Shown here: positions 1-58,376 of the stretch, one piece after another
Layout of the letters: every line of letters begins with the position of its first letter
How positions within the stretch are numbered: the stretch's first letter is position 1
Origin: Gracilaria domingensis
Taxonomy: Eukaryota; Rhodophyta; Florideophyceae; Gracilariales; Gracilariaceae
Direction: 5' to 3'
Length of the DNA stretch: 64,000 bases
Assembly (NCBI GenBank): GCA_022539475.1
Contig: VCMS01000184.1
Coordinates: 1 to 64,000 of the forward strand
The notes under the pieces: generated by a model
The model's input: only the letters and a program-made list of their open reading frames with translations
The model's database searches: none
What the model was told of the DNA's origin: nothing
Position numbers and translations under genes: made by a program

Positions 1-1027
1 ACAAGGGCTTCACCGTGACGTTTAATTACTTCCCACGGAGTCAAATTGGGCGGAGTGTCCACGCAGAGTGATGGGTCAACAGTACAACAACCATCCGGTC
101 TAGATTGAGGTTCACGATTGGTACCTTCTGACGAATTCGTCTCTAACCTCTTGCTCCGAGTAGGTGTCCCTTGTGTTCCAGACCGCTCGCCAGAAAACTT
201 GAACGTGCCATTCTTGCGGACAGAAGCACAACGTCATCGTCCTGCTGCTCCGCAGTTTCTGGTGCAGTTTGGGGTACAGATGGACCAGCTCCTTGTGCGG
301 ATTGCGCATCCGCGTCTGGAAGGGGACCTTTTATGATCTCATCTTCCTCTTCTTGCACAGCCGTCCCGTGCTGAACCGTCTGTTTCGACGCAGAAGATCC
401 CCTTGTGTCGACGGTCTGATTCATCGCAGGAGATGCCCTTTTCGACGCAGTGGGCTTCGTAGCGGAGGTAGACTTTGTTTGACCTGTCTGCTTCGTAGCT
501 GGGGATGCTCTCGTCTCCATAGACCGCTTCATAAAAGACGACGGGACCTGCCCGCGGAGGTGCTACTGATGCGCTACCTCTCGGTGTTGATGAACTTCGA
601 ATTGGCTCCGTGCGGCTTGTCGGCGTCCTCACCTCACTCATAGCACTCACCGTTCGTCGCTTGGCCGCGGGAATGCTGGCTGCCACCGGTTCCATCATTT
701 TCTCATCCCAAGGAGCGGCCGTCCGGAGATCCTGGATGTATTGTGGAAGATCCAGGCCCTCCGCCCGGTAAGGGTAGAACGTGTGACCGCTTCGACTGAT
801 GAGAGTATTATGAACCACCACAAGACCTGGTCCAATTGCTTCCCGTTCAACTCGCGGCGTAGAACACTTCCAATTCCATGCAACAACGCTTCCCCGACTA
901 TCACCTTTCCTTCATTCTCAATATCCATCTGCAGAGAAACCCGCATTCCACCTTGCAATGATCGAGTGCTCCGCCGAGTGCGAGGAGTCACGCTTTGCGT
1001 ACGCTTTCTAACACGAGTTGGCTTCAT
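1..1027 (-). pseudogene. Broken leftward gene of the transposon complex, unrecognised
   Basis: A leftward gene opens with ATG at 1027-1025, about 60 bp beyond the inverted leader repeat. The basic N-terminus (MKPTRVRKRTQSVTPRTRR) runs on in one frame. Near 835 the sensible reading changes frame and continues as a segment containing DLPQYIQDLRTAAPWDEK. Near 535 it changes again into a Ser/Thr/Lys-rich stretch with imperfect repeats of the type SPATKQT/SSASKQT, followed by an acidic patch (EEEDE). It leaves the window at position 1. I recognise no family. Its leader matches that of the rightward gene at 2647, so both probably belong to the same element or to two head-to-head copies. The frame switches may be decay or short introns. 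Confidence 0.45.
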
Positions 1028-1089
1028 GTTGAACCCCTATTGCAGTGAAATTTGTATATCAACAATACGCTCGCTCTGGACGATACAAG

Positions 1090-1187
1090 AACGGAGGTGA
1101 GCCTTTAAATGGCGACTTACGCTGGCCACCCCCGCTTTCGGCAGCTCCTCCCAGCGCACTGCCAGTCTCGTCCGTGTCCTGTCCGTG
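1090..1187 (-). promoter_or_regulatory. Shared leader module, left arm of inverted repeat
   Basis: About 95 bp here is the reverse complement of 2536-2631, with only a few mismatches. Both arms include the core CTTTCGGCAGCTCCTCCCAG and a GTAAGT donor-like hexamer in gene orientation, followed by CCATTTAAAGG. Each arm lies immediately upstream of a divergently oriented ATG (1027 leftward, 2647 rightward). It is most likely a promoter/5' leader used twice by the mobile element, perhaps with a leader intron donor. Confidence 0.6.
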
Positions 1188-1386
1188 GCCGCTCGCACGC
1201 TGATTGTACGCTTTAGAGTCGTGGAGTTCGCGCAATGATCACTCACGCGAGCAATGGTCGCGCTCTCTAATCGTGCTCTTCAAATGCTTTGCATAGTAGT
1301 CAAGAGTACACTCATTCACTTTCATGTACAACCTACTCCCGCCAATACACGTGGACAGCGGCGCCAACGTACCGGCGGCCGGGTGT

Positions 1387-1565
1387 AGCGAAATCACTGC
1401 GGGGCGGCGTGTTTTGGGAGGTCCCGGGAAGGCGCCAGAATGTGGCCAGAACGTGCCCGCGGGCGAGGGGGGTCGGTCGTGTTAGGGTAGGTACCCTAAC
1501 ACGACCGGACCCCCCCGCCCGCGGGCATAAAATCGCACATTTTTCAAAAAATCGCCCAAAACGTG
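1387..1565 (-). repeat. Fold-back repeat unit, copy A
   Basis: This unit is the inverted copy of 2204-2396. It contains a long GC-rich hairpin whose arms include CGTGTTAGGGTA / TACCCTAACACG and flanking GCCCGCGGGC blocks. With copy B beginning at 1561 it forms a larger palindrome: GTGTTTTGGGAGGT near 1409-1422 faces ACCTCCCAAAACAC near 1672-1685. Confidence 0.7.
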
Positions 1566-1706
1566 CCCGCGGGCGGGGGTGTCCGATCGTGTTAGGTTAC
1601 CTACCCTAACACGACCGACCCCCCCCCCCCGCCCGCGGCACGTTCTGGCCACATTCTGGCGCCTTCCGGAGACCTCCCAAAACACTCCTCCCGGCACTTC
1701 CGGCAC
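1561..1706 (+). repeat. Fold-back repeat unit, copy B (partial)
   Basis: This unit has the same hairpin (CGTGTTAGGTTA / TACCCTAACACG) and the same outer segment ending CTCCCGGCACTTCCGG as copy C. It is oriented opposite to copy A, which makes 1400-1700 a MITE-like fold-back with arms of over 100 bp. No coding capacity is seen. Confidence 0.7.
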
Positions 1707-1935
1707 CCACCGCGTCACCTCAATGCACCAACGCGTCTTCTCCATCCCGCAAACGCTCCCTAATTCCCACGCGCACCACACCTACTCTCTCTGCGATCAC
1801 CACATCCGGAACAGCGCCGTTCTAAAGTTATTCGTACGTAAACAAAGCTTTCTCTACACTCTCATATTATGTTTGAGATTAGCGTAGAGTTAAACATACA
1901 ATGTAGAACATAACGAGAGCTGCCAGATCTACGTT

Positions 1936-2097
1936 GTATTGCAATTGCGATTGCGATTGCACAAATACTCCCAATCGCATTCGTGATTGCGAAGGAGAGA
2001 GATGATTGCAATCGCGATTGAAAACGGTGAGGGAGATTGCAATTGCGATTGCAGAGGGGAAGGGTGATTGCAATTTCTCGCAATCGGATTGGACCAA
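1936..2097. repeat. Cluster of GATTGC / GCAATC words
   Basis: A 160 bp stretch is built from repeated and inverted GATTGC, GCAATC and GCGATTGC words (for example GCGATTGCGATTGC, ATTGCAATTGCGATTGC). It lies between fold-back copies B and C. It is either a degenerate short-word tandem repeat or a cluster of protein-binding sites. No gene is seen. Confidence 0.6.
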
Positions 2098-2203
2098 CCC
2101 CTGCAAGTGCCATGTTGCACAATTGCAACAGCCTGGTGCATATACTGCTGCAGCGTGTAGAACAGGTGGGAACCACTGATAGTACAGATTCGGTCACTGA
2201 TTC

Positions 2204-2396
2204 CGCACGTTTTGGGCGATTTTTTGAAAAATGTGCGATTTTATGCCCTCGGGCGGGGGGGTCCGGTCGTGTTAGGGTACCTACCCTAACACGACTGACC
2301 CCCCCCCCCGCCCGCGGGCACGTTCTAGCCACATTCTGGCACCCTCTGGAGGCCTCCCAAAACACTCCTCCCGGCACTTCCGGCAGTGATTTCGCT
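2204..2396 (+). repeat. Fold-back repeat unit, copy C
   Basis: This is the most complete single unit. It has a CACGTTTTGGGCGATTTT outer segment, a GC-rich hairpin with TTAGGGTA/TACCCTAA at the tip, then CCTCCCAAAACACTCCTCCC and a GCAGTGATTTCGCT end. The last 14 bp also occur, inverted, at the outer end of copy A. It is non-coding. Confidence 0.7.
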
Positions 2397-2535
2397 GCAC
2401 ACGCCGTGCACATATATCAAACTAGAAAAAACTAGCGCTTCACACCCACTTGATCCGCGACTTTTAGCACAATACGCGACCTTTGCAATAGCTCCGAATC
2501 GCGACGTGGCCGACACGCGACGCTATCGCACCGAG

Positions 2536-2631
2536 TGGACACGGACACGGACGAGACTGGCAGTGCGCTGGGAGGAGCTGCCGAAAGCGGGGGTGCCTAG
2601 CGTAAGTGCCATTTAAAGGTTCGCCTCCGTT
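2536..2631 (+). promoter_or_regulatory. Shared leader module, right arm of inverted repeat
   Basis: This is the reverse complement of 1090-1187. It carries the same GTAAGT (2602-2607) and CCATTTAAAGG, and it ends about 15 bp before the ATG at 2647. It probably contains the promoter or 5' leader of the rightward transposon genes. Confidence 0.6.
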
Positions 2632-2646
2632 GTTTGCGATGAAGCG

Positions 2647-3390
2647 ATGGATTCCACCGATGATGGAGAGGAGATACATCTTATCGACATGAGTGCTCCC
2701 CCTCCGGCGTTCCATGCATATGTCAGACTTTTCTTGGTTCTTCGCGATGCTTTGGCAGACAGCGATGGAGGCCCTGATCCGCCACGGGACGTGGGGTTTA
2801 GAGGGCTAATAGAGTTCTGCGCCGAGAACTATAAGGATATTCCGGAGGCAAGGAAGATGTTTGAGGAGGCCACTAACTCCAAGAACCTGCAGAACTTGAC
2901 ACTGCAACAGCTGCGAAAGAGTGTTGTGAATAACAAACCTGTGGAACAACGATATCTTGTAACGAAGCTTCTTGACAAGAAGGACGGGGATGAGGACCAG
3001 AGACTCCGCAATTTTTTCCTTCTCTCTATGGATATGGGTATATACCTACCGGTGCGATGCCTGGTTGGTTATTTCATGACCAGGAGAAAGCAGGTTCTGA
3101 AGACGACAGTGTTCATCCCACCAACAGCTGTGAACCCATTTGAGGTCGTTAGATACTTATCATACCTCGGCCACATAATGGGAGAGAACGACAACATCAG
3201 AATGATGAAGAAGAAACAACAGAAAAAGAAACGAAAAGTGAACCATGCACCATCTGTGTACATACCCACTTTTACGTCAATCTCCAAAGACAACTATGAT
3301 CGACTGGGATTCGGTATCAGTGAGGTCGTATGGGCATGGAGTTGTTTTGCGGGTCATCTTGGATACACAAACGTTCAGCACATGGTATAA
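2647..3390 (+). CDS. Transposon-associated 247-aa protein, unrecognised
   Basis: The frame opens with ATG directly after the leader repeat and runs 247 codons. The N-terminus is acidic (MDSTDDGEEIHLIDMS). The body is mixed helical sequence, with a strongly basic patch KKKQQKKKRKVN near residues 190-200 that could be a nuclear localisation signal. The last ~20 residues may not be native: from about 3325 another frame reads on to 3515 with well-formed sequence (MELFCGSSWIHKRSAHGITI), which suggests a frameshift and a longer original protein. I recognise no domain. Its position as the first rightward gene, ahead of the methyltransferase-SET gene, suggests an accessory transposon protein. Confidence 0.5.
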   Translation: MDSTDDGEEIHLIDMSAPPPAFHAYVRLFLVLRDALADSDGGPDPPRDVGFRGLIEFCAENYKDIPEARKMFEEATNSKNLQNLTLQQLRKSVVNNKPVEQRYLVTKLLDKKDGDEDQRLRNFFLLSMDMGIYLPVRCLVGYFMTRRKQVLKTTVFIPPTAVNPFEVVRYLSYLGHIMGENDNIRMMKKKQQKKKRKVNHAPSVYIPTFTSISKDNYDRLGFGISEVVWAWSCFAGHLGYTNVQHMV

Positions 3391-3639
3391 CCATACATTT
3401 ACATGAATATGCAGACTTTGAAGTATACAGCGCTAGAGACACGGGAGTCTGGTTATGCCCCGCCCAGCCAGAGTACTCGATTGAACACACAGGATGTGCC
3501 ACAGAGCAGTACTAGTGGATCGGTAGAGACCTTGAGTGATGAATGCGATACAAACCTCCGAATACTGGCTAAGGAATTTTTGACAGACCTCGAAACCATA
3601 TGCACCCACGATAGCCTCTATAGCTGACGGGCTGATCAG

Positions 3640-5784
3640 ATGAGGAACTGGATAGAGTTCTCGGAGATGCGGATGGATACCGTATCTGGTTCTGACTCCG
3701 GTGAGTTGCCTGCACGATTTCAGAACTTTTCGGAGTTGCTATGGAAACCGATACAGGGTATGCGTCATGCGGCAGGGTTCAATGTGGGCATTCATGGGAA
3801 ACCCGATATTGAACTGACGAAAACTCCTAAAACTTCCGGTAATGCCGAACCTTCTTCGACCAAATCTGCCCCAGCCCCACCTCGTCGAGAGTATATAGAT
3901 CTCGTGAGCTCCGATGGCGACGACTTCGAGAGGCGGTGAATTGTGCGGAGCATGAATCTCGGGTTGCCGGGTACAACATCCAAAAGACTGGTATTGAGCC
4001 GCCCATGAAGGGGATATCCAGTCTCCTTCGAATGAATATGGACACGGTGTGGAAGGGGATGAGAAAGTCACACTTTGTAGCGTACAACTGTGACATGAAG
4101 GACCTGAGGCACACACACACGAAACGTTTGTGAATCAGAGTGAGATTTTATGGGGTGAGGCACAGCTTGTCCTAACAGACCCTCCCTTCAACACTCGAAG
4201 GAAGAGGAACAAACGGAATAGTTCTCACGATGTCTTCAGTGAGGATGACATGATCCGAACGGCTGACTTAATAAGTTCCGCGCTTCGGTCAGGTGGGCAC
4301 TTCATCATATTCTGTGCCATGGCACAGTTTCATGTTTGGCACAGGATACTTTCGGAAACGGCGAGTACGAAAGATGAAGCTGGAAGCGAAGGTAAACCAG
4401 AACTCATTCCTTCGTTTAAAGTGGATGGGAATCCACTGGTGTTCATCCGGGATCGAAGTAATGTTGGAGGGAATCCACGGAAGTTTGGGATACAGCCCGT
4501 AACGGAGTACGCCGTTCATGGGGTGAAGCGTGGATTGCGACCATCCGAGGAAGCCAGTCTTACTCCATTTGAGGAGAACAATTTCATTCCTTCTACTTTC
4601 CCGGCTAACAGGAATGTAATTGACCGGGTGCCAAAACCGAGAGCGGGGGAGTGGTTGACATGGAAGGTAAATGAGCCAGGTAGTTCAGTACCAAGTGGCA
4701 GTACATAAGACCGGAGCAGAAGTCCAGGGAGTTGATGAAAGAGTTGATATGTCGGTTCACAAGACCGGGTGATCTTGCCATGGACATGTTCGCGGGAACT
4801 TTTTCTACGGGTATGGCGTGCCTATCGCTGACAAAGCATAGGAAGTTCTTGGGGTGCGAGAAGAATAGGCCATGTTTCAGCCATGCGAAGCACCATGTAA
4901 CGACTCTTATGGCCGAAGTTCTTCGCGAGGGGAAGAATGACATCGTGGTTGAACAGGAGGTGGTGGATGCTGCTTCAACGACTTATGAACGGGTTCCACA
5001 TCGGGACCGAAGTCGGCTTGAATGGGAGGCTCTATTTGGATACCCCCAGTACCAAGTGATGCCTGCACATATTACTCAGTTCCTAGGAAGATACTGGAAG
5101 GACTGGGAGTTTGTCGACAAGTGTGGACAGCATACTGTAGATCTTTGGGACGAGAAGTACCGAGGAGCTCTGAATCTAATGGATATGCATTTGCTGTTGA
5201 CTGTTGAAGCCAATCGCTATCGCGTACATGTAGCATCTTCTAAGATTTGACATCCCCGTGCTGGTATGGAGGTGTTCACGGAACATAAGATATTGGCTGG
5301 GGAAACTATCTGTCATTTCTATGGAACTTTGGTATACACGGATCTGACGAACCGGAAGGAAAGACACTTAACGTATGGAAGTGGCTGTCTCGGAGCAACT
5401 CCAGTGCGGTACAAGTTGTTTTCTATGATGGTCACTGTGACTGGTACGGAGCTTCTGCACCTGAGGAACAGACCAGGACAGGCTCAGGATAGAAAGGAGA
5501 GCGAAGTGTACATTGTCTCGGCGCCTTTTTGTATCGGTGGCTACATTAACGACGCCGGATATCATGCCGGGAATCCCGATTTATCGCAGCCCCGGTCAAA
5601 CAGGACTCGAAGTGCCAATGTGCAGATGGTGGAAGCGAAGTCCGTGATACAGTTTAAGTCCGACCTTTCTAACTATGCTCTACTTCGTTGTAGAGCAGTG
5701 AGAGATATTGAGAGGGGCGAAGAGTTGTATTTCAACTACGGAGAGCAGTACGCCTGGGACTGGGCTCTGACATTGGAGCAATAG
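3640..5784 (+). pseudogene. Broken DNA methyltransferase-SET fusion gene, copy 1
   Basis: The parts in order are an N-terminal Ser/Pro-rich segment with a SUMO-interaction-like motif (YIDLVSSDGDD, ~3890-3925); methyltransferase motif IV DPPF (4178-4189); motif I DLAMDMFAG (4771-4797); a linker; and a SET domain (5252-5784) with FYGTL, YINDAGYHAG, RSANVQ and GEELYFNYG. Compared with copy 2 (56686-58363, minus strand) it has at least three disabling changes: a longer CA run near 4105 that shifts frame, a missing G near 4697 that shifts frame, and CGA to TGA at 5248-5250. The SET GxG motif also reads GME instead of GMG. DPPF before FxG is the order of the beta-type N6-adenine/N4-cytosine DNA methylases (Pfam DNA methylase family). 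The intact ancestor would methylate DNA and, by inference, a lysine. Confidence 0.75.
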
Positions 5785-6057
5785 ATGAGTTCAGTACCGA
5801 ATAGAAAGTAAATATGCTTGTGAATGTTGCAGCTGCCTGCAATATGCGTTGTACATGTACACTGGAGCTCTTCATCTATTAGTAACGGCGATATTTGCGA
5901 CCCATTGGGCACTTAAAATTCCTAAAAAGCAGGACGTGCGGAGTCTCCCGGAATATCTGAACCATGCACCCCCCCCACCCCCTCCCCCCCCAACAATTTC
6001 GTTTCATTACCCCGTTTATCTCCACAACATGGGTATAACGCCGAGAAAGTGAAATAG
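5785..6057. other. Spacer with C-rich tract, repeated in copy 2
   Basis: The spacer between the SET stop and the next open frame contains an almost pure C tract (5968-5991). The same spacer follows copy 2 in inverted orientation (56430-56690), so it belongs to the element. A possible splice acceptor, TACGCAG, lies at the start of the next frame. Confidence 0.5.
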
Positions 6058-7068
6058 TACGCAGCGGAACAAGAGTGGACAGAAGAAGGAGCATCGGACG
6101 ATACGAATCAGGCTACAAGCACCGCACTTCCTAAACGGAAGTCGTCCTCGACGAAGGAGAGAGTCAGTGGGCGTCCTTCTACAGTACTCTCTCGCCCATC
6201 TCGCAGCGGGGCGTCTTCCGGGATTGCGTCAAGAATTCGTGGATCAGCGAACGATGTCGTGCCGTCAACTGCCGATAATTCAAATCGTGCATCTGTCTCT
6301 GCTCCTCAAGAAGATGAGGTAACTCGGCCCAGCGGGTCAGGACAGGAGGGCATGACATCTGGAACTGAAGAGGTTCGTATGACACCAAAACCTTCATGTC
6401 CCCGGCCGATATCGAAGACCGGAGCTACTGGGGCGCGGGTTACGCCGCCCAGTGGATCTGGACAACAAGGGACAATGACGAGAAGTCGTGAGAGCCCTAG
6501 TATATTAAGATCGTCACGTCCCTCCCTGTCTTCTAGAACTGGGGCCGCTATGAATCGTATTATGCCTCGCAATGGGTCCGGACAAGGGAGAAAGACTATA
6601 AGAAATCGAGAGACAACTGATAAACGAGTTACTCCTCGACCTTCCCCTCTTTCCAGAACGGGGGCTGTTGCAGCTCGTACGAGGCCCAATTCATCTGATA
6701 TACGATGCCATGGAGGAAGACAGACACGGGAGTTGGAGCTCGGAGCCGTGCCAAGGGTGGACACAGAACGCCTGCAGCCTCTCGTGTCTAAGGGTATGGC
6801 ACAGGAGGATAGTTCCAATAACGAAATAACACCGAATCTTGCGGCATTACCGGGGCCTGTCGCCGAAGAGGCTAGGAAAATACCGGAAGATATCCACACT
6901 GGTGTGAATTCAACCTCTATGAACAGACGTGATCTTTTAAATGAACTGAATTGCTTGAAAGAAAAGGTTAAGACGCTACAAGAGGACTTGATGGTTGGGG
7001 GAATTCTAGTGAAGATCGCCCAAGAGCAGAGTACGGCTTTGAAAAGAGGCTTGAAGAGAAGGATCTAG
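6058..7068 (+). CDS. Transposon-associated low-complexity / coiled-coil protein, N-terminal part
   Basis: The frame is open from 6058, after an in-frame TAG at 6055-6057. The first in-frame ATG lies near 6351, so either an upstream exon or that ATG supplies the start. The protein is rich in Ser, Pro, Arg and Thr. It has three imperfect ~45-residue repeats built around SRTGA...RxxPxSGSGQ...RxRE (roughly 6330-6690), then a leucine-rich helix (LLNELNCLKEKVKTLQEDL) near 6940. The helix runs into a frameshift at ~7046-7060, and the neighbouring frame carries on the heptads (LEEKDLVIEGLREALKQEG). With the 7060-8420 segment this was almost certainly one gene. The family is unrecognised. A structural or DNA-binding partner of the transposon machinery is possible but unproven. 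Confidence 0.55.
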   Translation, partial: YAAEQEWTEEGASDDTNQATSTALPKRKSSSTKERVSGRPSTVLSRPSRSGASSGIASRIRGSANDVVPSTADNSNRASVSAPQEDEVTRPSGSGQEGMTSGTEEVRMTPKPSCPRPISKTGATGARVTPPSGSGQQGTMTRSRESPSILRSSRPSLSSRTGAAMNRIMPRNGSGQGRKTIRNRETTDKRVTPRPSPLSRTGAVAARTRPNSSDIRCHGGRQTRELELGAVPRVDTERLQPLVSKGMAQEDSSNNEITPNLAALPGPVAEEARKIPEDIHTGVNSTSMNRRDLLNELNCLKEKVKTLQEDLMVGGILVKIAQEQSTALKRGLKRRI

Positions 7069-8420
7069 TCATTGAAGGGCTAAGAGAGGCATTGAAACAG
7101 GAGGGAGATAGGAGTACACGTGCTGCTGAACCTGGGCAGACAGGTCGAAATAAGCATAAAATTGAGGTGTGCGACGAGTTTCGAGGGGTTGCTCGAGCAG
7201 TGTATCACAACATGCTTACGTGGGCAAGGAGAGAAACAAGTGAGCTATGGCTCGAAGGTGAGTCGCTCACCCGAAATTGGGGTCACCGTGCCGAGAAGGT
7301 GAAAGACGCAACTGAGAGTGGGGAAGGGCTTATTGAGCCGGAGGAAGGTGGTTCATCCATGGTTCCTCAAAACCACGTGGAGCTCTTGGGCAGTTTTGGC
7401 ATGTTCACACCGTCGGTAGAGGGGGGGCCAGATGCTTTGCTGAAGAAAATGGTTGAAAGCGAGTTGAAGGAGTTGAGCTGGGAAGGTATTAGAAAAGCAT
7501 CTCTTACCGACAGGTGTATACTGGAACTTTGTGCAGATATGTGCCTTAGGCAGAGAATGCGGCAGACCATGAGTGACGTCGTGGGCGTTCGGAAGAGAAA
7601 TACGAGGGATAAACTATTTCTGCTCCTGGGGTACGATCTGATTTGGAGAAGAACAAAGCTGGTAGAAGAGAATGCTGACGAACTCACAATGCAGTTGAAG
7701 GAAGCGCAGGAGAACATACTGCGTCTTGACGAAAATGGTGTACCGAACACTTCATGGTGGAGAAAAGCTCCCTTTGTTCGTCTAAAGTACTCCAATGCGG
7801 ACAATGTCGAGGATATGCCGACGGAAGATCAAGACTTGTTCTTCCAAAACCGTGTCGGGGTACAAGTACTGAAGAAGTTTATTGGGTATGATGTGGAAGA
7901 CAAGGATACGGGCACCTTTTTAGATGGCAAAATACTGTTGCTCGCACGTTTGGACGCTTGGGTGTTGACGGTTGTGAGCCTTCTAAGTACGGATGTGTCA
8001 AGGGGTGGCCAGAGACAGAAACTGTTTACAAAGACGTTTGCCCAACTGCTACCTCTGTGTTTAAAGATTGTTCTGGGGGATGTTAGGCAACGTGTCTTGA
8101 GGACCAATTCCAGCGAGTTTCATAATTTTGGAACGACAACGGAAGATTGGACTAAGGTTCTTGGTAATGACATGAGAGAGGCTACATTTGGATATCGAAT
8201 GCCGTCGAACGGAAGACTTTACCTCACTGTGAAAGAACAATTTTTTATTGACAGTGTGAGCCGAAGATTGGGGTCTATTAGCGATTGTTTCGTTGGTGAA
8301 TGCAAGGAAGGGGATATGGAGTTCAAGGAAATGGACATGAACGATTTTGGAAGTAGCACAGGATCACAACAAAAGGCACCACAAGGTGAACATGTAGGGG
8401 ATGGAGCCCTTAATGTTTAA
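7061..8420 (+). CDS. Transposon-associated coiled-coil protein, C-terminal part
   Basis: About 450 codons are open to the TAA at 8418-8420, with no proper ATG near the beginning; 7092 reads TTG. This supports it being the frameshifted continuation of the preceding gene. After the coiled coil there is a ~350-residue largely helical region containing LELCADMCLRQRMRQTMSDV, a second coiled coil (LVEENADELTMQLKEAQENI), a motif TSWWRKAPFVRLKY, and an acidic tail (FKEMDMNDFG). The region is free of stops, so it decayed less than the methyltransferase-SET gene. No family is recognised. Its stop overlaps that of the opposing transposase gene in a shared TTAA. Confidence 0.55.
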
Positions 8421-11400
8421 GGCTGTACAACATCAACGTGCTCAGTTGGTCCTTCATCTGAATCATGATAGAATCGATTGATGTAGAATCGGTGTTGAAA
8501 CCATTGAAGTGGAGGACAAAAAGGTGGAGCAGGGTAGTTTGATCGAACAACATGGACAGTTCCCTGTAGTGCAGAAGCCGGAACCATCCCGTACCAAGGA
8601 GTTAACTCTACGATAGTCTCCGCTTTGGAATGACGAGGGAACGGAAGAGTGTGGTTCTTTTCATCGTTTGTAGCGCACCGTAAAGATATGCATTTCAATA
8701 TGTGGTCGATGTTTGTTGCTGGGGGTAAAACCTCGAAATACCGGACGAATGCCACCTCTGGTGCGGTAAGTGCAGAATCAAGGAGAGATATTCGAATCAG
8801 AGCGACTACCTGGGCAACCCAAGTCTCTGAATCTTCTCCGCTTACCAATACAGTGGAAAACTTTGGCTTTCTACTGGGACCAAATGCTGGAGAAGCGAAG
8901 ACACGTTGGATGAAGGGGTATTTGGGTCGTCCCAGCTTAAGTGCCTTAGAAGACAAATCGAAGTGTTCAAGAGTCGGAACGAAACCGCCTTTCACGAGGG
9001 CCGAATTCACCAGAGTTATCCTTGTCTTTTCTGGGAAGTATGTAATAGAGTGCTCATCCAGTGTTTCTTTCACGAGACTGAGGAAAGGAGGAAGGGCCTG
9101 TTCACCAATTTGGTCAAGAATCGACCTTGTGTCCGTACTTGAGAACATCTCTCTAACAGCAGTCCATGTTTTTGAACTGGACATACTTGAAACACAATGT
9201 TGAAGAGCTCGTAAAGTGAAAGAACGCCCTCTTATTGCAAACCGAGGAAGCTGTGTGGAAGTCCCTGGTAAACCTGGATTACGCTGGTAAGGAGTATTGC
9301 CATTCCATTGCTTTCTAACATGTCCGTGCTCAATGGAGCGAATAGTCTCCTCCACAGCCGTTGCTGTTCTTCTGGACGTCTTTTTGTAGTGTCTCTTAAA
9401 TACCAGGTGTGCATGTTCGTATATGCCTGCGTCGTAGTACTTGATACTTCCCAGGCGGCGAATATCGTCCACTAGATGATCGAGAAGATGAAACTTCAGA
9501 GTTCCCAGTCTGGAGGGATGAAAATCCGCCAGAGTCTTTGTTGCGGAACGCTTGAAGGCTTCAATCTCCGAACTAAGACACAGGAGAGAGCTTTCAGTCC
9601 AATACGGGTCACGATTGTATCTGAATAAGGTCGAAAGCAAGTCCGAGTACTGAGAGAAAACGGTTGTGATTGGGGCAACGTCCAGTTCTCCACAGCATAT
9701 GTCAAAGAATGCTCCTATGAAGGGGAAGACCATGTCAAGTGCTTTGTAGTTTTTGGCCTCCACCATTCCACGGAGACCGTCTTTCGTGAAGATACCATTC
9801 AAAGATTTGCCTTTCTCCTGCGTGGAGAAATCGATATGTAAACCTTTGGCAGGAGAATCGCGTTCTATGGCAGCTAGAATTGCGTTTGCATGGTTCAAGA
9901 GTTGGGTGCGTATCGTTCGAAATGAACGCGATGCAGATGTTCCTATTGTAGTGCACAGGGTGTCTGACTGCAGTCTCTCGATTGTGGCCGTTTTTATCAG
10001 CTTTGAGATACCGAGATGCAAGTTTTGTAATGTTTTGAATGAGAACAGACTGTATGGAGACAATCCCGGGATCATTCCAAGGCTTACGGAAGTTTCGAGG
10101 AACGAAGGAATGAGAGATATGGAATTTGAACGCATCAGAGTATCCGCTTGAGATCTCCTCTCCCTCGCACGACGTGGACGTCTTTCCGCCTCGTATTTTT
10201 GTGCATGTTGCAAGATAGCTGTGTATGTCTTTTGGATGCTTTTCGTGTGCTTTTGAGAACATCCGTTGAATGAGGTGGGAATAGGACTGCATAAAGATGA
10301 GCGAGGGGCTTTGCATCTATGACACGGGCTTTCCGTTTTGGTCCCATGAAGAATGGACAGAATGTCCTTAGCCTCAGGAATATCCGCACAATAACTTGCA
10401 AGCAGAGGATGGCACACTCCACTTAGTTTGTCTTCGCCGATGAACTGAAAACCTTTCTGCGTGAGATTTAGAATGGGCTCCAGGACTTGACGAAGAGATT
10501 CTTGAAGGATTTGCATCCTGGACTGGCGTAGAGACTTGCTAGAAACGAATGGCATTGCGTCTGCTTCAGATGCGGAAACCTCGATCAGTGTAGTAGGGAA
10601 GTATGCCACTACTGTGAGGTCATCACGGATGCACTTACGGCGAAGCTCGTCGGAGAAGTTGAGAAATATGAGGTGAAGAGGATAGGCGGTAACCGATGTT
10701 TGCTTTAGAGTTGTTGAAGACTTATCGGTGTATACCTGCAGAAGACCTACGAAAGATTCACTGTAACTTATTTCTTGGGAGTACCACACTATTCTACTAT
10801 CCAAAAAGCCCATAACCATTTCCTTAAGTTTTGAGGTGGCGTCTATTGCGAGAGAGCCGGACATGGGGTGAGATATTTTCGTGGAGTTGGTCTGTGGTAT
10901 AGGGTGGAAGAATGTGTTTTCGTTGTTAGCCAAGTGGAGCTGTTTCACAAGTGTCTGAACGGGGTCTCTCGTGTAGAGGGTGGCGCTGAACTTACATCCT
11001 TCTGGCGAGACAGTTCTGCGATTGAAACCGTCCTTTGAGGCGTATCGTTCGAAAATGGCGTTCTTCAGTTCTGTACAGCGCTTGGAACTTGTTATGGTCT
11101 CGTTGAATCGCTTTTTCGAGAATCGCGGGTCCCGAAGTAGCCCAATTAGCTCGTCTGCCTCACGATGACCAAGGTTGGAAGCTACTGAAGCCAGACAAAC
11201 CGTGAGATAATCCATATGCAAATCACCGAGGGCCTCCTCAGAAGGCACTGGGCCGGAACTGCTTCCGTATTCTCGCTCTAATGACGCGGGATCCGGGGAA
11301 GGAGAAACACAATGCGAAGTGTCCGGAATGGGAGGGGCGCACGGAATGGGGTCGACGATGTCCTCGGACACCGGAGGCTCGGGAAGGCGACAAGGGGCAG

Positions 11401-11692
11401 TGACCGTTTCGGAAGATGCGGGCGCGGGCGCGGAAAGCTTGAGACGCTTGCTTCTCCGAATGGGCTGCCTATTTTCGTCTTCCAGCGCTGCTTTCAGACG
11501 AAAAAGGCAATGGTTGACATGCTGTTGAAGAGATAAGACTCCTCGGCGAGTAACGAAGGGGCACCCACGCTTCTTATGTGTACAGTAGTAGACCATGGGA
11601 AGAAGAAATGAACGAGAAACGAAGACAAAGACTGCAAGGGAAGGTCGTCCGAAGGGAGAAGGAGGTCGAGCGACAGTCAATATCGACGTCAT
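8417..11692 (-). CDS. Plavaka-like (CMC-type) DNA transposase
   Basis: This is a 1091-codon uninterrupted frame. ATG at 11692 is the first start, but the in-frame ATG at 11596 (residue 33) sits right before the zinc finger and may be the real one. It has an N-terminal C2HC-like finger (Cys37, Cys44, His58, Cys62). A central block contains SVTAYPLHLIFLNFSDELRR, VVAYFPT, GVCHPLLASYCADIPEAKDI and SPCHRCKAP. This matches the Plavaka transposase order: AYPvY..lGNI...R, L.gY.P, C.P.la.Y.aD.PE, CP.C. A later block has LKFHLLDHLVDDIRRLG, YEHAHLVFKRHYKKTSRR, like the K-H-L..H...IR..G...E..H..K..Y..T..R block of that family. By family knowledge it would cut and join the element ends. It is the only intact large gene in the complex and converges on the accessory gene with overlapping stops. 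Confidence 0.75.
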   Translation of the reverse strand: MTSILTVARPPSPFGRPSLAVFVFVSRSFLLPMVYYCTHKKRGCPFVTRRGVLSLQQHVNHCLFRLKAALEDENRQPIRRSKRLKLSAPAPASSETVTAPCRLPEPPVSEDIVDPIPCAPPIPDTSHCVSPSPDPASLEREYGSSSGPVPSEEALGDLHMDYLTVCLASVASNLGHREADELIGLLRDPRFSKKRFNETITSSKRCTELKNAIFERYASKDGFNRRTVSPEGCKFSATLYTRDPVQTLVKQLHLANNENTFFHPIPQTNSTKISHPMSGSLAIDATSKLKEMVMGFLDSRIVWYSQEISYSESFVGLLQVYTDKSSTTLKQTSVTAYPLHLIFLNFSDELRRKCIRDDLTVVAYFPTTLIEVSASEADAMPFVSSKSLRQSRMQILQESLRQVLEPILNLTQKGFQFIGEDKLSGVCHPLLASYCADIPEAKDILSILHGTKTESPCHRCKAPRSSLCSPIPTSFNGCSQKHTKSIQKTYTAILQHAQKYEAERRPRRARERRSQADTLMRSNSISLIPSFLETSVSLGMIPGLSPYSLFSFKTLQNLHLGISKLIKTATIERLQSDTLCTTIGTSASRSFRTIRTQLLNHANAILAAIERDSPAKGLHIDFSTQEKGKSLNGIFTKDGLRGMVEAKNYKALDMVFPFIGAFFDICCGELDVAPITTVFSQYSDLLSTLFRYNRDPYWTESSLLCLSSEIEAFKRSATKTLADFHPSRLGTLKFHLLDHLVDDIRRLGSIKYYDAGIYEHAHLVFKRHYKKTSRRTATAVEETIRSIEHGHVRKQWNGNTPYQRNPGLPGTSTQLPRFAIRGRSFTLRALQHCVSSMSSSKTWTAVREMFSSTDTRSILDQIGEQALPPFLSLVKETLDEHSITYFPEKTRITLVNSALVKGGFVPTLEHFDLSSKALKLGRPKYPFIQRVFASPAFGPSRKPKFSTVLVSGEDSETWVAQVVALIRISLLDSALTAPEVAFVRYFEVLPPATNIDHILKCISLRCATNDEKNHTLPFPRHSKAETIVELTPWYGMVPASALQGTVHVVRSNYPAPPFCPPLQWFQHRFYINRFYHDSDEGPTEHVDVVQP

Positions 11693-12255
11693 GCTCAGAA
11701 CGGAGAATATATTTTGAGTTTAAATCACGTGCTTTCGTTCAAAAAGGAACGTAGGTACACGTCGACCTCAACACAAGGGTGTACTTCTCGTATTATCTAC
11801 CACTGGTTATAAACCTGTGGTTTCGCAACGTTGTACGCTGTACACCTGTCCAATCTCGCACAGAAAAATAAATCTCTTCCCTCCACCGCCGCCGCCGCGC
11901 CTCCGGCGTCCGACCTACCGTTACCGTCGCGCGTTCTCCCTCGCCGGAGTAGAACGCGAAGATGTGGATGGCACGGATCACGAGCGGCGCTCCGTCGTAC
12001 CTTTCTCCGCCCTCGCACTCGCTACAAAGTAGAGTGCGGGGAAGAGAATGAGGTACGCTTCATGTCCGCCTAATGGACGCCTCCATAAAGCGGACATCAT
12101 CCGCATCCGTAATTCCGTGCAGTCTTTCCGTGCAGTCTTTTCGTACGTGCTTCCATATCCTTCTACGTATCTTTGTTCTAAATTAAGCAATCCTCACCAC
12201 GTCTCTTCGCGCTCTGCGACATGTAAACGGCAGAAAAAGGCTTTGGGTTACTTTT
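11693..12255. other. Upstream region of the transposase, no gene seen
   Basis: The sequence upstream of the transposase ATG includes a TTTAAATCACGTG segment that could hold its promoter. I found no copy of the 1090/2536 leader here and no clear terminal inverted repeat marking the element's end. The short open frames overlap one another on both strands and look spurious. Confidence 0.4.
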
Positions 12256-12396
12256 GCGAGTTACTAGGTCCCTCGACGTTTCTAGCGCAACGTTTCTATT
12301 TTGCTCTATCAATGGTACGTTCCATCGCATTTCAAATGTATCCAACGGAGCATTGACTAACTTATGGATACTTTCTGCTTACGTATACAGGTAAAC
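12256..12396 (+). repeat. Intron-bearing module, direct repeat copy 1
   Basis: About 140 bp beginning GCGAGTTACTAGGTCCCTCG recurs 375 bp downstream. Both copies contain a complete-looking short intron: GTACGT donor (12315), TGACTAAC branch site (12354-12361), a pyrimidine-rich stretch and TATACAG acceptor (12390), 76 nt in all. The upstream exon part reads CELLGPSTF..AQRF in the same frame in both copies. The function is unknown. Confidence 0.55.
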
Positions 12397-12630
12397 GACC
12401 AATTTCATTTCGTCTCTCAAGATCGATCTCTGGCTGTTCGGGATAGGCGATTCTGGTACTTGGTTGGGACATAGGCTGCTCTCTCGTTTATCGCATCTTG
12501 CGGTATGTTTGCTGCATGGGCATTCTTGGTGTCCTTGCTTGTGAGTTCTCGCTTCGACACCTTTCGCGCTTTACGATGATATGGTGGGCTGGTAATCTAA
12601 CCGATCCCTTTCCTGCTTCTTCTTCCGTTT

Positions 12631-12774
12631 GCGAGTTACTAGGTCCCTCGACTTTTATAGCGCAACGTTTCTGTTTTGTTTTATCAATGGTACGTTCCAT
12701 CGCATTTCAAATGTATCTAACGGATCATTGACTAACTTATGGATACTTTCTTCTTGCGTATACAGGTAAATGAC
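12631..12774 (+). repeat. Intron-bearing module, direct repeat copy 2
   Basis: This is the second copy of the module at 12256. Its putative 76-nt intron lies at 12690-12765, and donor, branch site and acceptor are all preserved despite scattered substitutions. It lies about 50 bp upstream of a cluster of three hairpins. Confidence 0.55.
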
Positions 12775-12820
12775 TTTTGATGCGTACGTAGCTCACGAGT
12801 AGCAGGTGCAGGTTCCTAAA

Positions 12821-12990
12821 GTAGGGAACCATGCATCTGGGCATGGTTCCCTACATGAGAAACGGAGAGGATGAGGCGCTTCGCGCCTCATCCTCTCGGA
12901 GTGCGTATTTGTTTTACCGATACAGCACTATGGTGGAGGTGCAGTCTGCGGCATCTGCCGCAGATTGCGCCTACACCCGCTCCATCATGG
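12821..12990. ncRNA. Three consecutive strong hairpins, candidate structured RNA
   Basis: Hairpin 1: arms 12821-12834 and 12841-12854, 14 bp perfect, 6-nt loop. Hairpin 2: arms 12865-12879 and 12883-12897, 15 bp perfect, 3-nt loop. Hairpin 3: inner arms 12945-12952 and 12957-12964 perfect, extending with wobbles and a bulge to about 12931-12987. They sit back to back downstream of the duplicated intron module. They could be a processed structured RNA, a terminator-like 3' end or a miniature fold-back element. Sequence alone does not decide. Confidence 0.4.
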
Positions 12991-13094
12991 GGAAATGGTA
13001 CATGTAATATAGCGAAGTAGTGGTTAGCAAAAGCGGTCGATAGAAGAATAGATACGAATAAAACGGTATGATTTCAAAATGGGCATCATCTGTA

Positions 13095-14298
13095 CTAGCA
13101 CCAGTATTCCATGCGTTGCAGGGTATCATTCCGCAGAAGGTATCGTGTAATGTGCACCTTAATGGAAACTGAACCTAGACTTCGCGAAATACCGTTCAGG
13201 TAGCCCTCGATTAAAGAACTAGCATGAGTGGAAAACCCACCAGTATTTACTGCACAACGATTCTGGACGACCCAAGCAATTATCTCCAAATTTTGAAATA
13301 ATTGATCTCGATATTTTTTCAAAAGATTTACTGGACGACCCTTGCCAATTTCTGGACGACCCTCGCCAAAAACTAGCATCTGCAAGAGACAGACGGAGTC
13401 GGGAAAGAATTCGCATTTCTTGAACTTCAAGGTAACACCGGCGTTACGCAGAACCTGCATCACTTTCCTCACATGAGACATATGTTCATGCATACTGTTG
13501 GAAAATACGGCAATGTCGTCCAAGTACACAAGACAAGTCTCCCACTTGAGTTTGGCCAGCAGAATATCAATCGCGCGCTGAAACGTAGCAGAAGAATTCG
13601 TTAGCCTGAAGGGCATCCATTTGAAACGGTTCAGTCCTTGATGAAACACAAATGCGGTCTTTTCGCGATCTTCTTTTCGAATTGGAACTTACCAGTAACC
13701 CCAATTCCCAGCGAAAACTCATGCAATCAAATTTAATTCGAATGTCATAGGATTTTCATTTCTTGTTCGGTCAATTTTCATTCTGCCAGGTGGTGTGTAA
13801 TTATGTCTTCGTTGCATCGAAATCTACTTAGACTCCATTGAAAGCAGTTTTTCTAAAACTTTCGATCCATTGAAGATGCCTTGAGCATTGAAAAAAATAT
13901 GCTTAGATACAGAAAAGCAAATGAATATTCAAAGACGGAAAGTTTTCCCTGGGATTGGCGTCTAGGGCGGTGAATACTCTGGCCCTTTTCATCGAGTCGA
14001 TGTACTAATCCATCCGTGGAACAGAACACACGTCCTTGACGGTAACGGCGTTGAGTCGCCTGTAATCGATGCAAAAACGCCACGATCCATCCGACTTCGG
14101 AACAAGTACGACGGGCGATGCACATGACGACTGAGCTGTGTCAATTATGTCGACACGTAGCATCTTCTCGACTTGAGACTTTTCTTCTTTCCGCGCTTTC
14201 GGACCTGCCCGATACGGATGTTGCGCAATAGTGCGAGTATCTGGCAGCAGATCACTACAATGCTCCGTGATTCCAATTGTTCCAGGAGACCGGCTCAC
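13095..14298 (-). pseudogene. Ty3/gypsy reverse transcriptase fragments
   Basis: The upstream fragment (14298-14005) contains ASPVVLVPKSDGSWRFCIDYRRLNAVT. The downstream fragment (13649-13095) contains MPFRLTNSSATFQRAID and the catalytic box CLVYLDDIAVFS. The segment between them is frameshifted and rearranged: at 13850-14000 the fragment is open in another frame. The palm motifs are recognisable, but the gene is dead and its 3' part, with RNase H and integrase, is missing. Confidence 0.8.
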
Positions 14299-17647: not shown

Positions 17648-17863
17648 ACCGGGCTACGGTGTACCAAGCAGCGGCAAGATCAAATTAACAACGAGAGGTC
17701 TCGATACTCCAAAGAGTAAGTAACGACCGGCAAATAAAACACTCTAGAGAGTCCACTGTTCCACAGTAGCTTCCCAGAAACCAAAAGATCACTAATCGTG
17801 AAACTTCTCGACAAGGAACGAGAACGATGAAAGAATCAACCCGTTCTAGGTCGGGAGACCACT

Positions 17864-18805: not shown

Positions 18806-18831
18806 ATAGTATCATGAACCACTAAGCGATC

Positions 18832-43147: not shown

Positions 43148-43152
43148 GTTTA

Positions 43153-44797: not shown

Positions 44798-44896
44798 TGT
44801 GAGGAAGAAAAGAGGGGTGAAGGAAAAGTGAGCGGTGCATGCGCTGCGCCGCTCATTTTTTTATTTTGAAGAGTACGCCGACACGCGCAGGGCGCA

Positions 44897-45289: not shown

Positions 45290-45392
45290 GACGAAATGTA
45301 GTTGATAGTTTGACGAACGATAGAGATAGGAGCATAAGACGCACGAGACTCATTCTTATAGTCTAGATCATAGGTTAGTGTGCACCTGAATT

Positions 45393-45446
45393 TGCCATGA
45401 CGGCAGGTCATGGCAAGTGTAATTGCCATGATGGCAGGTCATGGCA
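45393..45446. promoter_or_regulatory. Two operator-like 23 bp dyads, left LTR
   Basis: TGCCATGAC-N5-GTCATGGCA (45393-45415) and TGCCATGA-N7-TCATGGCA (45424-45446) repeat at a spacing of 31 bp, about three helical turns. A third, weaker CGCCAGCATGGCG element follows. They lie between the antisense start and the sense TATA-like box. Confidence 0.55.
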
Positions 45447-45555
45447 GTGTCATTCGCCAGCATGGCGGTATAACACCTTGTCATAGGTACACGTGCATTC
45501 CACGACGAAGGCTGCGTGGCGTAGGCGCCCCCTGCGGTGGCAAATGCGCCAAACA

Positions 45556-53717: not shown

Positions 53718-53820
53718 GACGAAATGTAGTTGATAGTTTGACGAACGATAGAGATAGGAGCATAAGACGCACGAGACTCATTCTTATAGTCTAGATCATA
53801 GGTTAGTGTGCACCTGAATT

Positions 53821-56215: not shown

Positions 56216-56272
56216 TGACGAAGGACTCGAACCTTTACATGATAGCATCAAAAGCTAATGCCTTACCAACGG
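56216..56272 (-). tRNA. 5'-truncated tRNA-Gln(UUG)-like sequence
   Basis: The minus strand reads GCCGTTGGTAAGGC (D arm), then an anticodon arm TTAGC-TTTTGAT-GCTAT (anticodon TTG, with one mismatch at the stem base), a short variable region and the T-arm core GGTTCGAGTCC. The 5' acceptor strand is missing, because the truncated transposon copy begins there. The GGTAAGGC and GGTTCGA.TCCTTC stretches recall organellar trnQ. It may be a relic, an organelle-derived insertion or a SINE head. Confidence 0.35.
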
Positions 56273-56273
56273 C

Positions 56274-58376
56274 GAGAGAGTACTGTAGAAGGACGCCCAC
56301 TGACTCTCTCCTTCGTCGAGGACGACTTCCGTTTAGGAAGTGCGGTGCTTGTAGCCTGATTCGTATCATCCGATGCTCTTATCTTCTTCTGTCCACTCTT
56401 GTTCCGCTGCGTACTATTTCGCTTTCTCGGCGTTATACCCATGTTGTGGAGATAAACGGGGTAGTGAAACGAAATTGTTGGGGGAGGAGGGGGTGGGGGG
56501 GTGCATGGTTCAGATATTCCGGGAGACTCCGCAGTTCCTGCCTTTTAGGAATTTGAGGTGCCCAATGGGTCGCAAATATCTCCGTTACAAATAGATGAAG
56601 AGCTCCAGTGTACATGTTCAACGCGTATTGCAGGCAGCTGCAACATTCACAAGCATATTTACTTTCTATTCGGTACTGCACTCATCTATTGCTCCAATGT
56701 CGGAGCCCAGTCCCAGGCGTACTGCTCTCCGTAGTTGAAATACAACTCTTCGCCCCTCTCAATATCTCTTACTGCTCTACAACGAAGTAGAGCATAGTTA
56801 GAAAGGTCGGACTTAAACTGTATCAAGGACTTCGCTTCCACCATCTGCACATTGGCACTTCGAGTCCTGTTTGACCGGGGCTGCGATAAATCGGGATCCC
56901 CGGCATGATATCCGGCGTCGTTAATGTAGCCCCCGATACAAAAAGGCGCCGGGACAATGTATACTTCGCTCTCCTTTCTATCCTGAGCCTGTCCTGGTCT
57001 GTTCCTCAGGTGCAGAAACTCCGAACCAGTCACAGTGACCATCATAGAAAACAACTTGTACCGCACTGGAGTTGCTCCGAGACAGCCACTTCCATACGTT
57101 AAGTGTCTTTCCTTCCGGTTCGTCAGATCCGTGTATACCAAAGTTCCATAAAAATGACAGATAGTTTCCCCAGCCAATATCTTATGTTCCGTGAACACTC
57201 CCATACCAGCACGGGGATGTCGAATCTTAGAAGATGCTACATGTAAGCGATAGCGATTGGCTTCAACAGTCAACAGCATATGCATATCCATTAGATTCAG
57301 AGCTCCTCGGTACTTCTCGTCCCAAAGATCTACAGTATGCTGTCCACAATTGTCGACAAACTCCCAGTCCTTCCAGTATCTTCCTAGGAACTGAGTAATA
57401 TGTGCAGGCATCATTTGGTACTGGTGGTATCCAAATGGAGCCTCCCATTCAAGCCGACCTCGGTCCCGATGTGGAACCCGTTCATAAGTCGTTGAAGCAG
57501 CATCCACCACCTCTTGTTCAACCACGATGTCATTCTTTCCCCCGCGAAGAAGTTCGGCCATAAGAGTCGTTATATGGTGCTTCGAATGGCTGAAACATGG
57601 CCTATTCTTCTCGCACCCCAAGAACTTCCTATGCTTTGTCAGCGATAGGCACGCCATACACGTAGAAATATTTCCCGCGAACATGTCCATGACAAGATCA
57701 CCCGGTCTTGTGAACCGACATATCAACTCTTTCATCAACTCCCTGGACTTCTGCTCCGGTCTTATGTACTGCCCACTTGGTACTGAACTACCTGGCTCAT
57801 TTACCTTCCATGTCAACCACTCCCCCGCTCTTGGTTTCGGCACCCGGTCAATTACATTCCTGTTAGCCGGGAAAGTAGAAGGAATGAAATTGTTCTCCTC
57901 AAATGGAGTAAGACTGGCTTCCTCGGATGGTCGCAATCCACGCTTCACCCCATGAACGGCGTACTCCGTTACGGGCTGTATCCCAAACTTCCGTGGATTC
58001 CCGCCAACATTACTTCGATCCCGGATGAAGACCAGTGGATTCCCATCCACTTTAAACGAAGGCATGAGTTCTGGCTTACCTTCCCTTCCAGCGTCATCTT
58101 TCATACTCGCCGTTTCCAACAGTATTCAAGTCAGCCGTACTGATCATGTCATCCTCACTGAAGACATCGTGAGCACTATTCCGTTTGCTCCTCTTCCTTC
58201 GAGTGTCAAAGGGAGGGTCTGTTAGGACAAGCTGTCCCTCACCCCATAAAATCTCACTCTGATTCACAAATGTTTCATGTGTGTGCCTCAGGTCCTTCAT
58301 GTCACAGTTGTACGCTACAAAGTATGACTTTCTCATCCCCTTCCACACCTTGTCCATATTCATTCGAAGGAGACTG
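56274..58376 (-). mobile_element. Truncated, inverted second copy of the transposon segment
   Basis: Corresponds to about 4016-6190 of copy 1, including the SET stop, the C-tract spacer and the beginning of the low-complexity gene. Both ends are abrupt: one against the tRNA-like sequence, the other against repeat R. No terminal repeats are seen. Confidence 0.85.
56686..58363 (-). pseudogene. DNA methyltransferase-SET fusion gene, copy 2
   Basis: The main frame (58119-56686) is 477 codons without interruption and spans methyltransferase motif I (DLVMDMFAG, about 57674-57700) through the complete SET domain (RAGMGVF, FYGTL, YINDAGYHAG, RSANVQ, GEELYFNYG). This shows the two enzymes are one polypeptide. 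The N-terminal frame (58363-58094) carries motif IV, LTDPPFDTRR. Between them ~80 bp present in copy 1 (around 4270-4350) are deleted, which shifts frame, so this copy is also inactive. The MTase order (DPPF then FxG) fits beta-type N6-adenine/N4-cytosine methylases. SET enzymes methylate protein lysines with S-adenosylmethionine. Truncated upstream at 58376. Confidence 0.8.

What the first reader, a model, noticed from the sequence alone, without database searches (positions are those of the whole stretch)
2647..11692. Plavaka-like transposon complex carrying a DNA methyltransferase-SET fusion
Seen: a recognisable transposase (8417-11692) converges on genes that include a protein with DPPF...FxG methyltransferase motifs joined to a SET domain. 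The open frame at 56686-58119 proves the two domains share one chain. Known: transposons of the related KDZ group in fungi can carry TET/JBP DNA-modification genes. A DNA methylase and a histone-type methylase in one transposon polypeptide is something I do not know to be described. Inference: the element may write its own chromatin state to escape or exploit silencing.
Basis: partly seen in the sequence, partly recalled or inferred. Interest (0 to 1): 0.87.

Follow-up and report, generated by a model that had tools for sequence, protein, structure and literature searches.

The report
Giant seaweed transposon with dual methylase
A very large jumping gene, present in many copies in a red seaweed genome, carries one protein that joins a bacterial-type DNA-methylating enzyme to a SET (histone-methylating type) enzyme, so the element may write its own chemical marks on DNA and chromatin.

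The parts
1..13395 (.). giant Plavaka element, truncated on the left by the contig start
   Evidence: window 1-1705 aligns with the element in L021; right end shared by the 10 fetched transposase loci
1..1036 (-). 5' part of the ParB-like gene, broken into short frames here (related proteins P0002/P0003 are 1097/1170 aa)
   Evidence: alignment to L021 2969-5485; ParB label weak: PHROG 3264 E 0.0014 for P0003 only, no ParB in Pfam or NCBIfam
1087..2634 (.). long inverted-repeat (palindromic) region between the two divergent genes
2647..5784 (+). MTase-SET gene, copy 1, broken by in-frame stops and frameshifts
   Evidence: unbroken relatives
4163..4336 (+). catalytic (DPPF) part of the beta-class MTase
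   Evidence: PF01555 profile 2-60, 17.3 bits, below cut-off on its own; full-length match in the intact copy
4711..4875 (+). SAM-binding (FAG) half of the MTase
   Evidence: PF01555 profile 163-215, 5e-10
5263..5742 (+). SET domain, copy 1
   Evidence: PF00856 9.6e-8; same place
6029..8420 (+). basic, coiled-coil-like gene in two overlapping frames (broken here); no Pfam match for either frame; start inferred from the C465 copy
   Evidence: its 3' part from 7017 on lies in the 10 fetched transposase loci
8417..11719 (-). Plavaka transposase, 1100 codons, intact frame
   Evidence: PF18759 2.1e-16; CHRC and HLLDH motifs
12248..12774 (.). subterminal repeats near the right end
13376..13395 (.). 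right terminus ...GCATCTGCAAGAGACA-GACG
   Evidence: same end in the 21 right ends read, GACG in 19 of 21; of the 11 not chosen by a right-end query (10 transposase loci and the window) 10 have GACG
13396..13688 (-). interrupted LTR-retrotransposon reverse transcriptase: the insertion site
   Evidence: PF00078 6.6e-18 for the frame 13098-13688; junction
56271..58376 (-). second, partial copy: FAG half of MTase + SET open (56689-58125), DPPF half in another frame, both ends truncated
   Evidence: 96.7% identical to 4346-6196 and 94.5% to 4019-4273

Best explanation
This is one copy of a high-copy, probably autonomous giant Plavaka transposon of a red alga. One of its regular genes encodes a two-enzyme 'writer': a beta-class N6-adenine-type DNA methyltransferase of bacterial or phage type, followed on the same chain by a SET lysine methyltransferase. 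Shown here: the element's ends and gene layout, its repetition in the genome, the fusion in unbroken natural frames, models of both folds, conserved catalytic motifs in distant relatives, and purifying selection between two intact copies. Inferred: the MTase methylates adenine on the element's DNA (and perhaps other DNA). SET methylates a histone lysine on the nucleosomes beside it. The pair holds element promoters in an open state in a host whose repeats are silenced by histone methylation. The ParB-like and coiled-coil proteins may recruit or spread the writer. My probabilities: transposon-borne MTase-SET fusion under selection about 0.97; active N6-adenine methylation about 0.75; histone as SET substrate about 0.6; net anti-silencing effect about 0.5.
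Against: No activity, expression or methylation data were available. The window's own two copies are broken, and many rows have stops or shorter frames. Target-site duplications were found in only 1 of 5 copies with both ends read. Of 6 places where a right end was predicted from a left end, 2 had it and 4 did not. The selection test rests on one pair chosen for intact frames; other pairs give dN/dS of 0.32-0.67. The SET 'NH' motif reads mostly ND here, so substrate or activity may differ. The structural ranking does not separate H3K4, H4K20 and other SET classes. Other gracilarioids are reported to have cytosine methylation (Gracilariopsis chorda; G. dura and Gracilariopsis lemaneiformis), so the apparent lack of a C5-methyltransferase needs checking. 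Marks could equally be repressive, as for rotifer N4CMT.
Confidence: 0.5

Rival explanations
1. Copy control: the fusion deposits repressive marks, so the element quiets its own copies and spares the host, much as rotifer N4CMT maintains silencing of transposons.
For: A captured amino-methyltransferase with a chromatin module does this in bdelloid rotifers, which also lack C5-methyltransferases (PMC8885841 passages); PRC2 rows are among the SET structural matches.
Against: The genome holds many near-identical copies, so control is not tight; the rotifer enzyme is a host gene, this one is carried by the element; MLL-type SETs rank first in Foldseek, though within a close field.
Confidence: 0.17
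2. Transposition timing: adenine methylation of the element's ends lets its transposase (or the ParB-like protein) recognise replicated, hemimethylated copies, like Dam control of IS10 (recalled); SET opens the nucleosomes at the ends.
For: The MTase model falls in the CcrM/M.BceJIV structural group; the gene is found beside the transposase in two divergent lineages.
Against: No target motif of the MTase is known and no enrichment at the ends was tested; the SET part is not needed for this.
Confidence: 0.13
3. Restriction-modification-like addiction: the ParB-like protein is a nuclease and the MTase protects DNA from it, so losing the element harms the cell.
For: The ParB-like gene lies head to head with the MTase-SET gene; weak ParB match E 0.0014.
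Against: ParB label is weak (no ParB in Pfam or NCBIfam; no phage match); with many copies the element cannot easily be lost; SET unexplained.
Confidence: 0.05
4. Passenger cargo: the fusion was captured once and drifts along without benefit to the element.
For: Many copies are broken, both window copies among them; copy 1 v copy 2 shows no significant constraint (pN 0.024, pS 0.041, p 0.12).
Against: Purifying selection between two intact copies; 43 of 55 aligned sequences keep both catalytic motif sets; same layout in two lineages.
Confidence: 0.05
5. Same architecture and role but the base made is N4-methylcytosine, not N6-methyladenine.
Against: DPP[YF] in 51 of 55 sequences is the usual adenine signature (recalled); best structural matches are adenine enzymes.
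Confidence: 0.1

Closest known systems
Plavaka DNA transposons with TET/JBP genes (Kojima 2025, PMC12730594; abstract, sections 16 and 18 and passages read)
   Same: Plavaka transposase; TGT..ACA termini as in PlavakaA; carries an enzyme acting on epigenetic DNA marks
   Different: Here a DNA methylase (writer) plus SET, not a TET/JBP oxidase; red alga, not fungus; the TET+ Plavaka of that paper all belong to PlavakaB
Giant Plavaka elements of red algae (Bostrychia genome paper, Current Biology 2025: recalled only, nothing seen; not among the papers listed)
   Same: Giant Plavaka elements amplified in red algal genomes
   Different: I could not read it, so I cannot say whether it reports the MTase-SET gene
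Plavaka giant repeats of Amoebidium (PMC11244446, three passages)
   Same: Large multigene blocks flanked by a Plavaka transposase; some genes with hits in red algae
   Different: The passages name tyrosine recombinases, no MTase-SET
SET-carrying HarbingerS and MuDR transposons of Phytophthora (one passage of PMC12730594)
   Same: DNA transposon carrying a SET methyltransferase gene
   Different: Other superfamilies; the passage mentions no fused DNA methyltransferase
Bdelloid rotifer N4CMT (PMC8885841 passages; PDB 8s9m)
   Same: Bacterial beta-class amino-methyltransferase captured by eukaryotes and joined to a chromatin module
   Different: Joined to a reader (chromodomain), not a writer (SET); host gene rather than transposon gene
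CcrM and M.BceJIV bacterial N6-adenine methyltransferases (PDB 6pbd, 9c3s)
   Same: Fold; motif order DPPY before FxG (recalled for these enzymes)
   Different: Bacterial enzymes without SET

Membership tests
Plavaka transposons (CMCT) | Plavaka transposase domain | tested here: met
   PF18759 60.5 bits, cut-off 26.3
[quoted passage not shown]
   CHRC at 466 and HLLDH at 744, one of each in the protein; the catalytic D and E were not mapped
PlavakaA | 5'-TGT..ACA-3' termini | tested here: met
   CGTC-TGTGTT in 15 of 15 left ends; GAGACA in the 21 right ends read, GACG next in 19 of 21; ends were located by similarity, so sameness is partly by selection; the CGTC/GACG outside TGT..ACA looks like part of the element
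PlavakaA | 2-bp target-site duplication | tested here: inconclusive
   1 of 5 copies with both ends read, taking CGTC/GACG as element (C178 yes; C179, C218, C89, C99 no)
beta-class N6-adenine DNA methyltransferases | motif order catalytic DPPY/F, target recognition, SAM-binding FxG | tested here: met
   PF01555 profile 2-215 of 221 in one frame; DPP[YF] 51 of 55
beta-class N6-adenine DNA methyltransferases | fold | tested here: met
beta-class N6-adenine DNA methyltransferases | methylates adenine N6 | not testable with these tools
   needs an assay
SET lysine methyltransferases | SET fold | tested here: met
SET lysine methyltransferases | GxG and C-terminal catalytic Tyr | tested here: met
   second Gly of GxG 49 of 53, Tyr 47 of 51 sequences with a letter there
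SET lysine methyltransferases | N-H of the NHSCxPN motif | tested here: inconclusive
   N 49 of 55, but the next residue is D in 47 of 55; some active SETs deviate (recalled)
SET lysine methyltransferases | methylates a lysine | not testable with these tools
   needs an assay
TET/JBP-carrying transposons | TET/JBP gene | tested here: inconclusive
   no PF12851 match in the genome, but the control search rang nowhere
Rotifer N4CMT-like chromatin-linked MTases | chromodomain on the MTase chain | tested here: inconclusive
   Pfam scan of the intact chain lists MTase and SET above cut-off and no chromodomain at E up to 0.5; about 470 N-terminal residues are unassigned
ParB proteins (neighbour gene) | ParB N-terminal domain | tested here: inconclusive
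   PHROG 3264 E 0.0014 in P0003 only; no ParB in Pfam or NCBIfam

The most novel reading that the evidence does not exclude
A single transposon-encoded enzyme that writes both DNA adenine methylation and histone lysine methylation, kept by selection in at least two red algae (Gracilaria, Chondrus) and many unnamed relatives, and borne by two lineages of Plavaka elements: a mobile, self-propagating epigenetic writer acting in a host without a detected C5-methyltransferase.
Probability: 0.45. Interest if true: 0.9.

Novelty: new variant of a known kind. Interest (0 to 1): 0.74.

Why it matters
Transposons are known to carry single erasers (TET/JBP) or a SET gene. A DNA writer and a histone-type writer on one chain, inside a high-copy element, would be a natural dual-writer tool. 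It would also be a direct test of whether 6mA and histone marks act together in eukaryotes, and would bear on how giant elements spread in red algal genomes.

Tried and rejected
Rejected: variable left truncation as in LINE elements. The apparent left breaks are runs of N in five of the 10 loci (C315, C269, C127, C218, C339), the contig end in four (C400, C401, C187, C97) and my fetch limit in one (C91). Rejected: a TIR start at C465 (L023 about 2521), which proved to lie inside the ParB-like gene once longer copies were read. A TIR search inside the window alone found nothing, because the left end is not in the window. The first protein search with the 479-residue piece found one relative only, because most full-length proteins fell outside its length limit; the full-length query found 54. 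Of the 80 phage-collection loci, 12 were read: frames of 219-322 codons, MTase-like by eye; no domain scan was made of them, so no ParB fusion was shown or excluded. Scans of that collection with single proteins gave no relative. No phage match for P0003. The dN/dS of the C179 copy is unreliable: its MTase half (dN 0.170) and SET half (dN 0.007) differ too much, as in a recombinant. SET pairing: 63 of 129 MTase rows have a SET row 365-445 bases downstream. Right ends predicted from left ends: one of 7 stretches asked did not exist (C165); of the 6 fetched, C99 and C89 had the right end, C38, C22, C53 and C109 did not. Absence from print rests (10 of 11 papers with the word Plavaka listed); most subscription papers are not held.
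Full report
What is in the window. The stretch 8420-11719 on the minus strand is one open frame of 1100 codons that matches the Plavaka transposase (PF18759, 60.5 bits, cut-off 26.3). It has one CxxC and one HxxxH motif, motifs described for this transposon clade in PMC12730594; the catalytic residues were not mapped. To its left and convergent with it lies a gene with N6_N4_Mtase and SET matches. In the window this gene is broken by in-frame stops and frameshifts. A second, partial copy lies at 56271-58376 on the minus strand. Its 479-codon frame joins only the SAM-binding half of the MTase to SET; the copy has a 74-base deletion and its DPPF half lies in another frame.

Host. The neighbour gene's closest proteins, P0002 and P0003, are from Gracilaria domingensis at 90-91% identity. 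The record of P0003 has the same length, 1,013,300 bases, as contig C22 of the window's genome. The genome has 77.9 Mb, and the G. domingensis assembly is given as 78 Mb in PMC10388701 (passages). The host is therefore a red alga (taxonomy). The window begins at base 1 of contig C184.

Copies and unbroken frames. All genome lists here are capped. The transposase has 42 scored rows, the window's own and 41 others at 96-97% identity, 37 of 42 without a stop (1753 first-look candidates). The query of the FAG half plus SET has 90 rows, its own included; 70 of 90 span residues 1-479 within 15 residues, and 9 have a 1055-codon frame with no stop in the match. Two of these, C257 and C465, have no stop over all 1055 codons. 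In C257 (L021:6394-9561) Pfam gives N6_N4_Mtase 4.5e-15 over profile positions 2-215 of 221 and SET 3.4e-7 over 1-105 of 105, in one frame.

The element. The 10 fetched transposase loci share the window's sequence to its base 13395, or within a few bases of it, and then diverge. Left ends were found by walking outward in other copies. The ends read CGTCTGTGTT at the left (15 of 15 left ends) and GCAAGAGACA at the right (21 right ends), followed by GACG in 19 of 21. Most of these were found by queries that contained the end. Independent of that are the two left ends, the 10 transposase loci and the window, of which 10 of 11 have GACG, and the two right ends. At one insertion the uninterrupted relative shows that GACG is not native (C187 against L024). 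Five copies with both ends measure about 21.5, 22.9, 23.7, 22.4 and 22.5 kb (C178, C179, C218, C89, C99). At four further places the right end was not where a left end predicted it. TGT..ACA fits the PlavakaA termini of PMC12730594. The 2-bp target-site duplication given there was seen in 1 of 5 copies, so it is not shown. From left to right the element carries: a 342-codon frame near its left end, a 415-codon frame, two HAD-type hydrolase genes, a ParB-like gene, the MTase-SET gene, a coiled-coil-like gene and the transposase. The ParB label is weak: E 0.0014 in one PHROG family for P0003, none in Pfam and NCBIfam.

Is the methylase-SET gene part of the transposon? Of 10 loci picked by transposase, 6 reach far enough left to judge, and those 6 carry MTase-SET sequence; 4 end in a gap or contig end first. 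C257 and C465 were picked by the fusion itself and are not counted here; C257 has the transposase in two frames, and in C465 homology to the element ends inside the coiled-coil gene. In an independent test with profile hits, 35 of 129 MTase rows have a Plavaka row convergent within 9 kb downstream, 0 have one on the same strand downstream, and 1 and 1 have one upstream; about 1.2 is expected from density alone. I gave that script 129 of the 150 MTase rows and, for Plavaka, the 123 rows and 41 of the 42. Both lists are capped, so 35 is a lower bound; whether the other 94 lack a transposase is not known. A second lineage (32 MTase rows of 684-696 bases) shows the convergent layout in 13 of 32 rows, 12 of them at 5.5-5.9 kb. 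One member, on C12, is 39% identical to the first lineage and again has both domains in one frame. A third type, three frames of 1169-1170 codons on C382, also pairs an MTase row with a SET row.

Age and selection. A full-length search finds 54 relatives at 27-46% identity, 37 of 54 with both Pfam domains precomputed; one is named Chondrus crispus, the others are listed without an organism. In the alignment of 55 sequences DPP[YF] is kept in 51, the FAG glycine in 55 and the SET terminal tyrosine in 47 of 51 with a letter there; the NH pair of SET reads mostly ND. The MTase set is complete in 51, the SET set (two Asn and the Tyr) in 46, both in 43 of 55. Two intact copies differ by dS 0.046 and dN 0.0117 over 1055 codons, p 6.6e-7 with counts rounded; other pairs give dN/dS of 0.32-0.67, the C179 copy being a likely recombinant. 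The two broken window copies do not differ significantly from neutrality (pS 0.041, pN 0.024, p 0.12), as expected for decaying copies.

Chromatin setting. No C5-methyltransferase (PF00145) was found in this genome, while the control rang in 10 of 14 well-known prokaryote genomes; a gene split by introns could be missed. CpG is not strongly depleted (o/e 1.03 in the window, 0.94 in the element part, 0.88 in the intact gene). Against this, PMC8566409 (passages) reports cytosine methylation in Gracilariopsis chorda, and PMC9861306 (passages) changes of DNA methylation in Gracilaria dura and Gracilariopsis lemaneiformis. The passages also report H3K27me3 on at least half of the repeats of a unicellular red alga. 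PMC12636532 (passages) describes 6mA downstream of transcription starts in green algae and its possible coordination with H3K4me3. On this basis I favour an anti-silencing writer at about 0.5, with copy control, transposition timing and an addiction module as rivals. None of the activities has been shown.

What is known. Transposons with TET/JBP genes and with SET genes are described (PMC12730594, abstract, two sections and passages). A captured bacterial amino-methyltransferase joined to a chromatin reader acts in rotifers (PMC8885841, passages). Giant Plavaka repeats are described in Amoebidium (PMC11244446, three passages). I recall giant Plavaka elements in the red alga Bostrychia (Current Biology 2025), but the paper was not among those listed and I could not check whether it names this gene. 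Ten paper searches listed no title or abstract start that reports a DNA methylase fused to SET; of what they listed, only the passages named above were read, so this is weak evidence. I file it as a new variant of a known kind: a transposon that carries chromatin-modifying enzymes, with an enzyme pair I do not know to be described.

Noticed in passing
window 44797-55500: Nearly intact LTR retrotransposon: 2275-base direct repeats 99.56% identical (44798-47071 and 53226-55500), starting TGTGAGG and ending TTTTCA, around frames with aspartyl protease matches and polymerase-like sequence; one stop lies between two frames at about 50297.
   Followed up: partly
window 58388-60111 and 62276-64000: Two copies of a 1.7-kb repeat, 97.5% identical; the first begins about 12 bases beyond the end of the second MTase-SET fragment.
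   Followed up: no
window 1087-2634: Nested inverted repeats (the main arms 65-105 bases) between the ParB-like and MTase-SET genes; five of 10 other copies break into runs of N at or to the right of this region.
   Followed up: partly
L025 500-4259: Metabolic-looking genes inside the element: two HAD hydrolases (PF08282) and a 415-codon frame resembling a ketopantoate reductase (recalled resemblance, no significant family match).
   Followed up: partly
L021 2966-5485; P0002, P0003: The ParB-like proteins are named in public records as cell-wall-anchored protein SasA and a mediator subunit, which look like wrong automatic names.
   Followed up: partly
G000 C382 10484, 36683, 110684: Three frames of 1169-1170 codons of a further MTase-SET lineage on one contig.
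   Followed up: no
window genome, SET search: 142 of 150 scored SET rows score about 30-38 bits and only 8 score above 49 bits like ordinary host SET genes; 63 MTase rows pair with one of them, the rest were not checked.
   Followed up: partly
window 17861-18806 and 42174-43149: Inverted copies of a 0.97-kb repeat, 86% identical.
   Followed up: no
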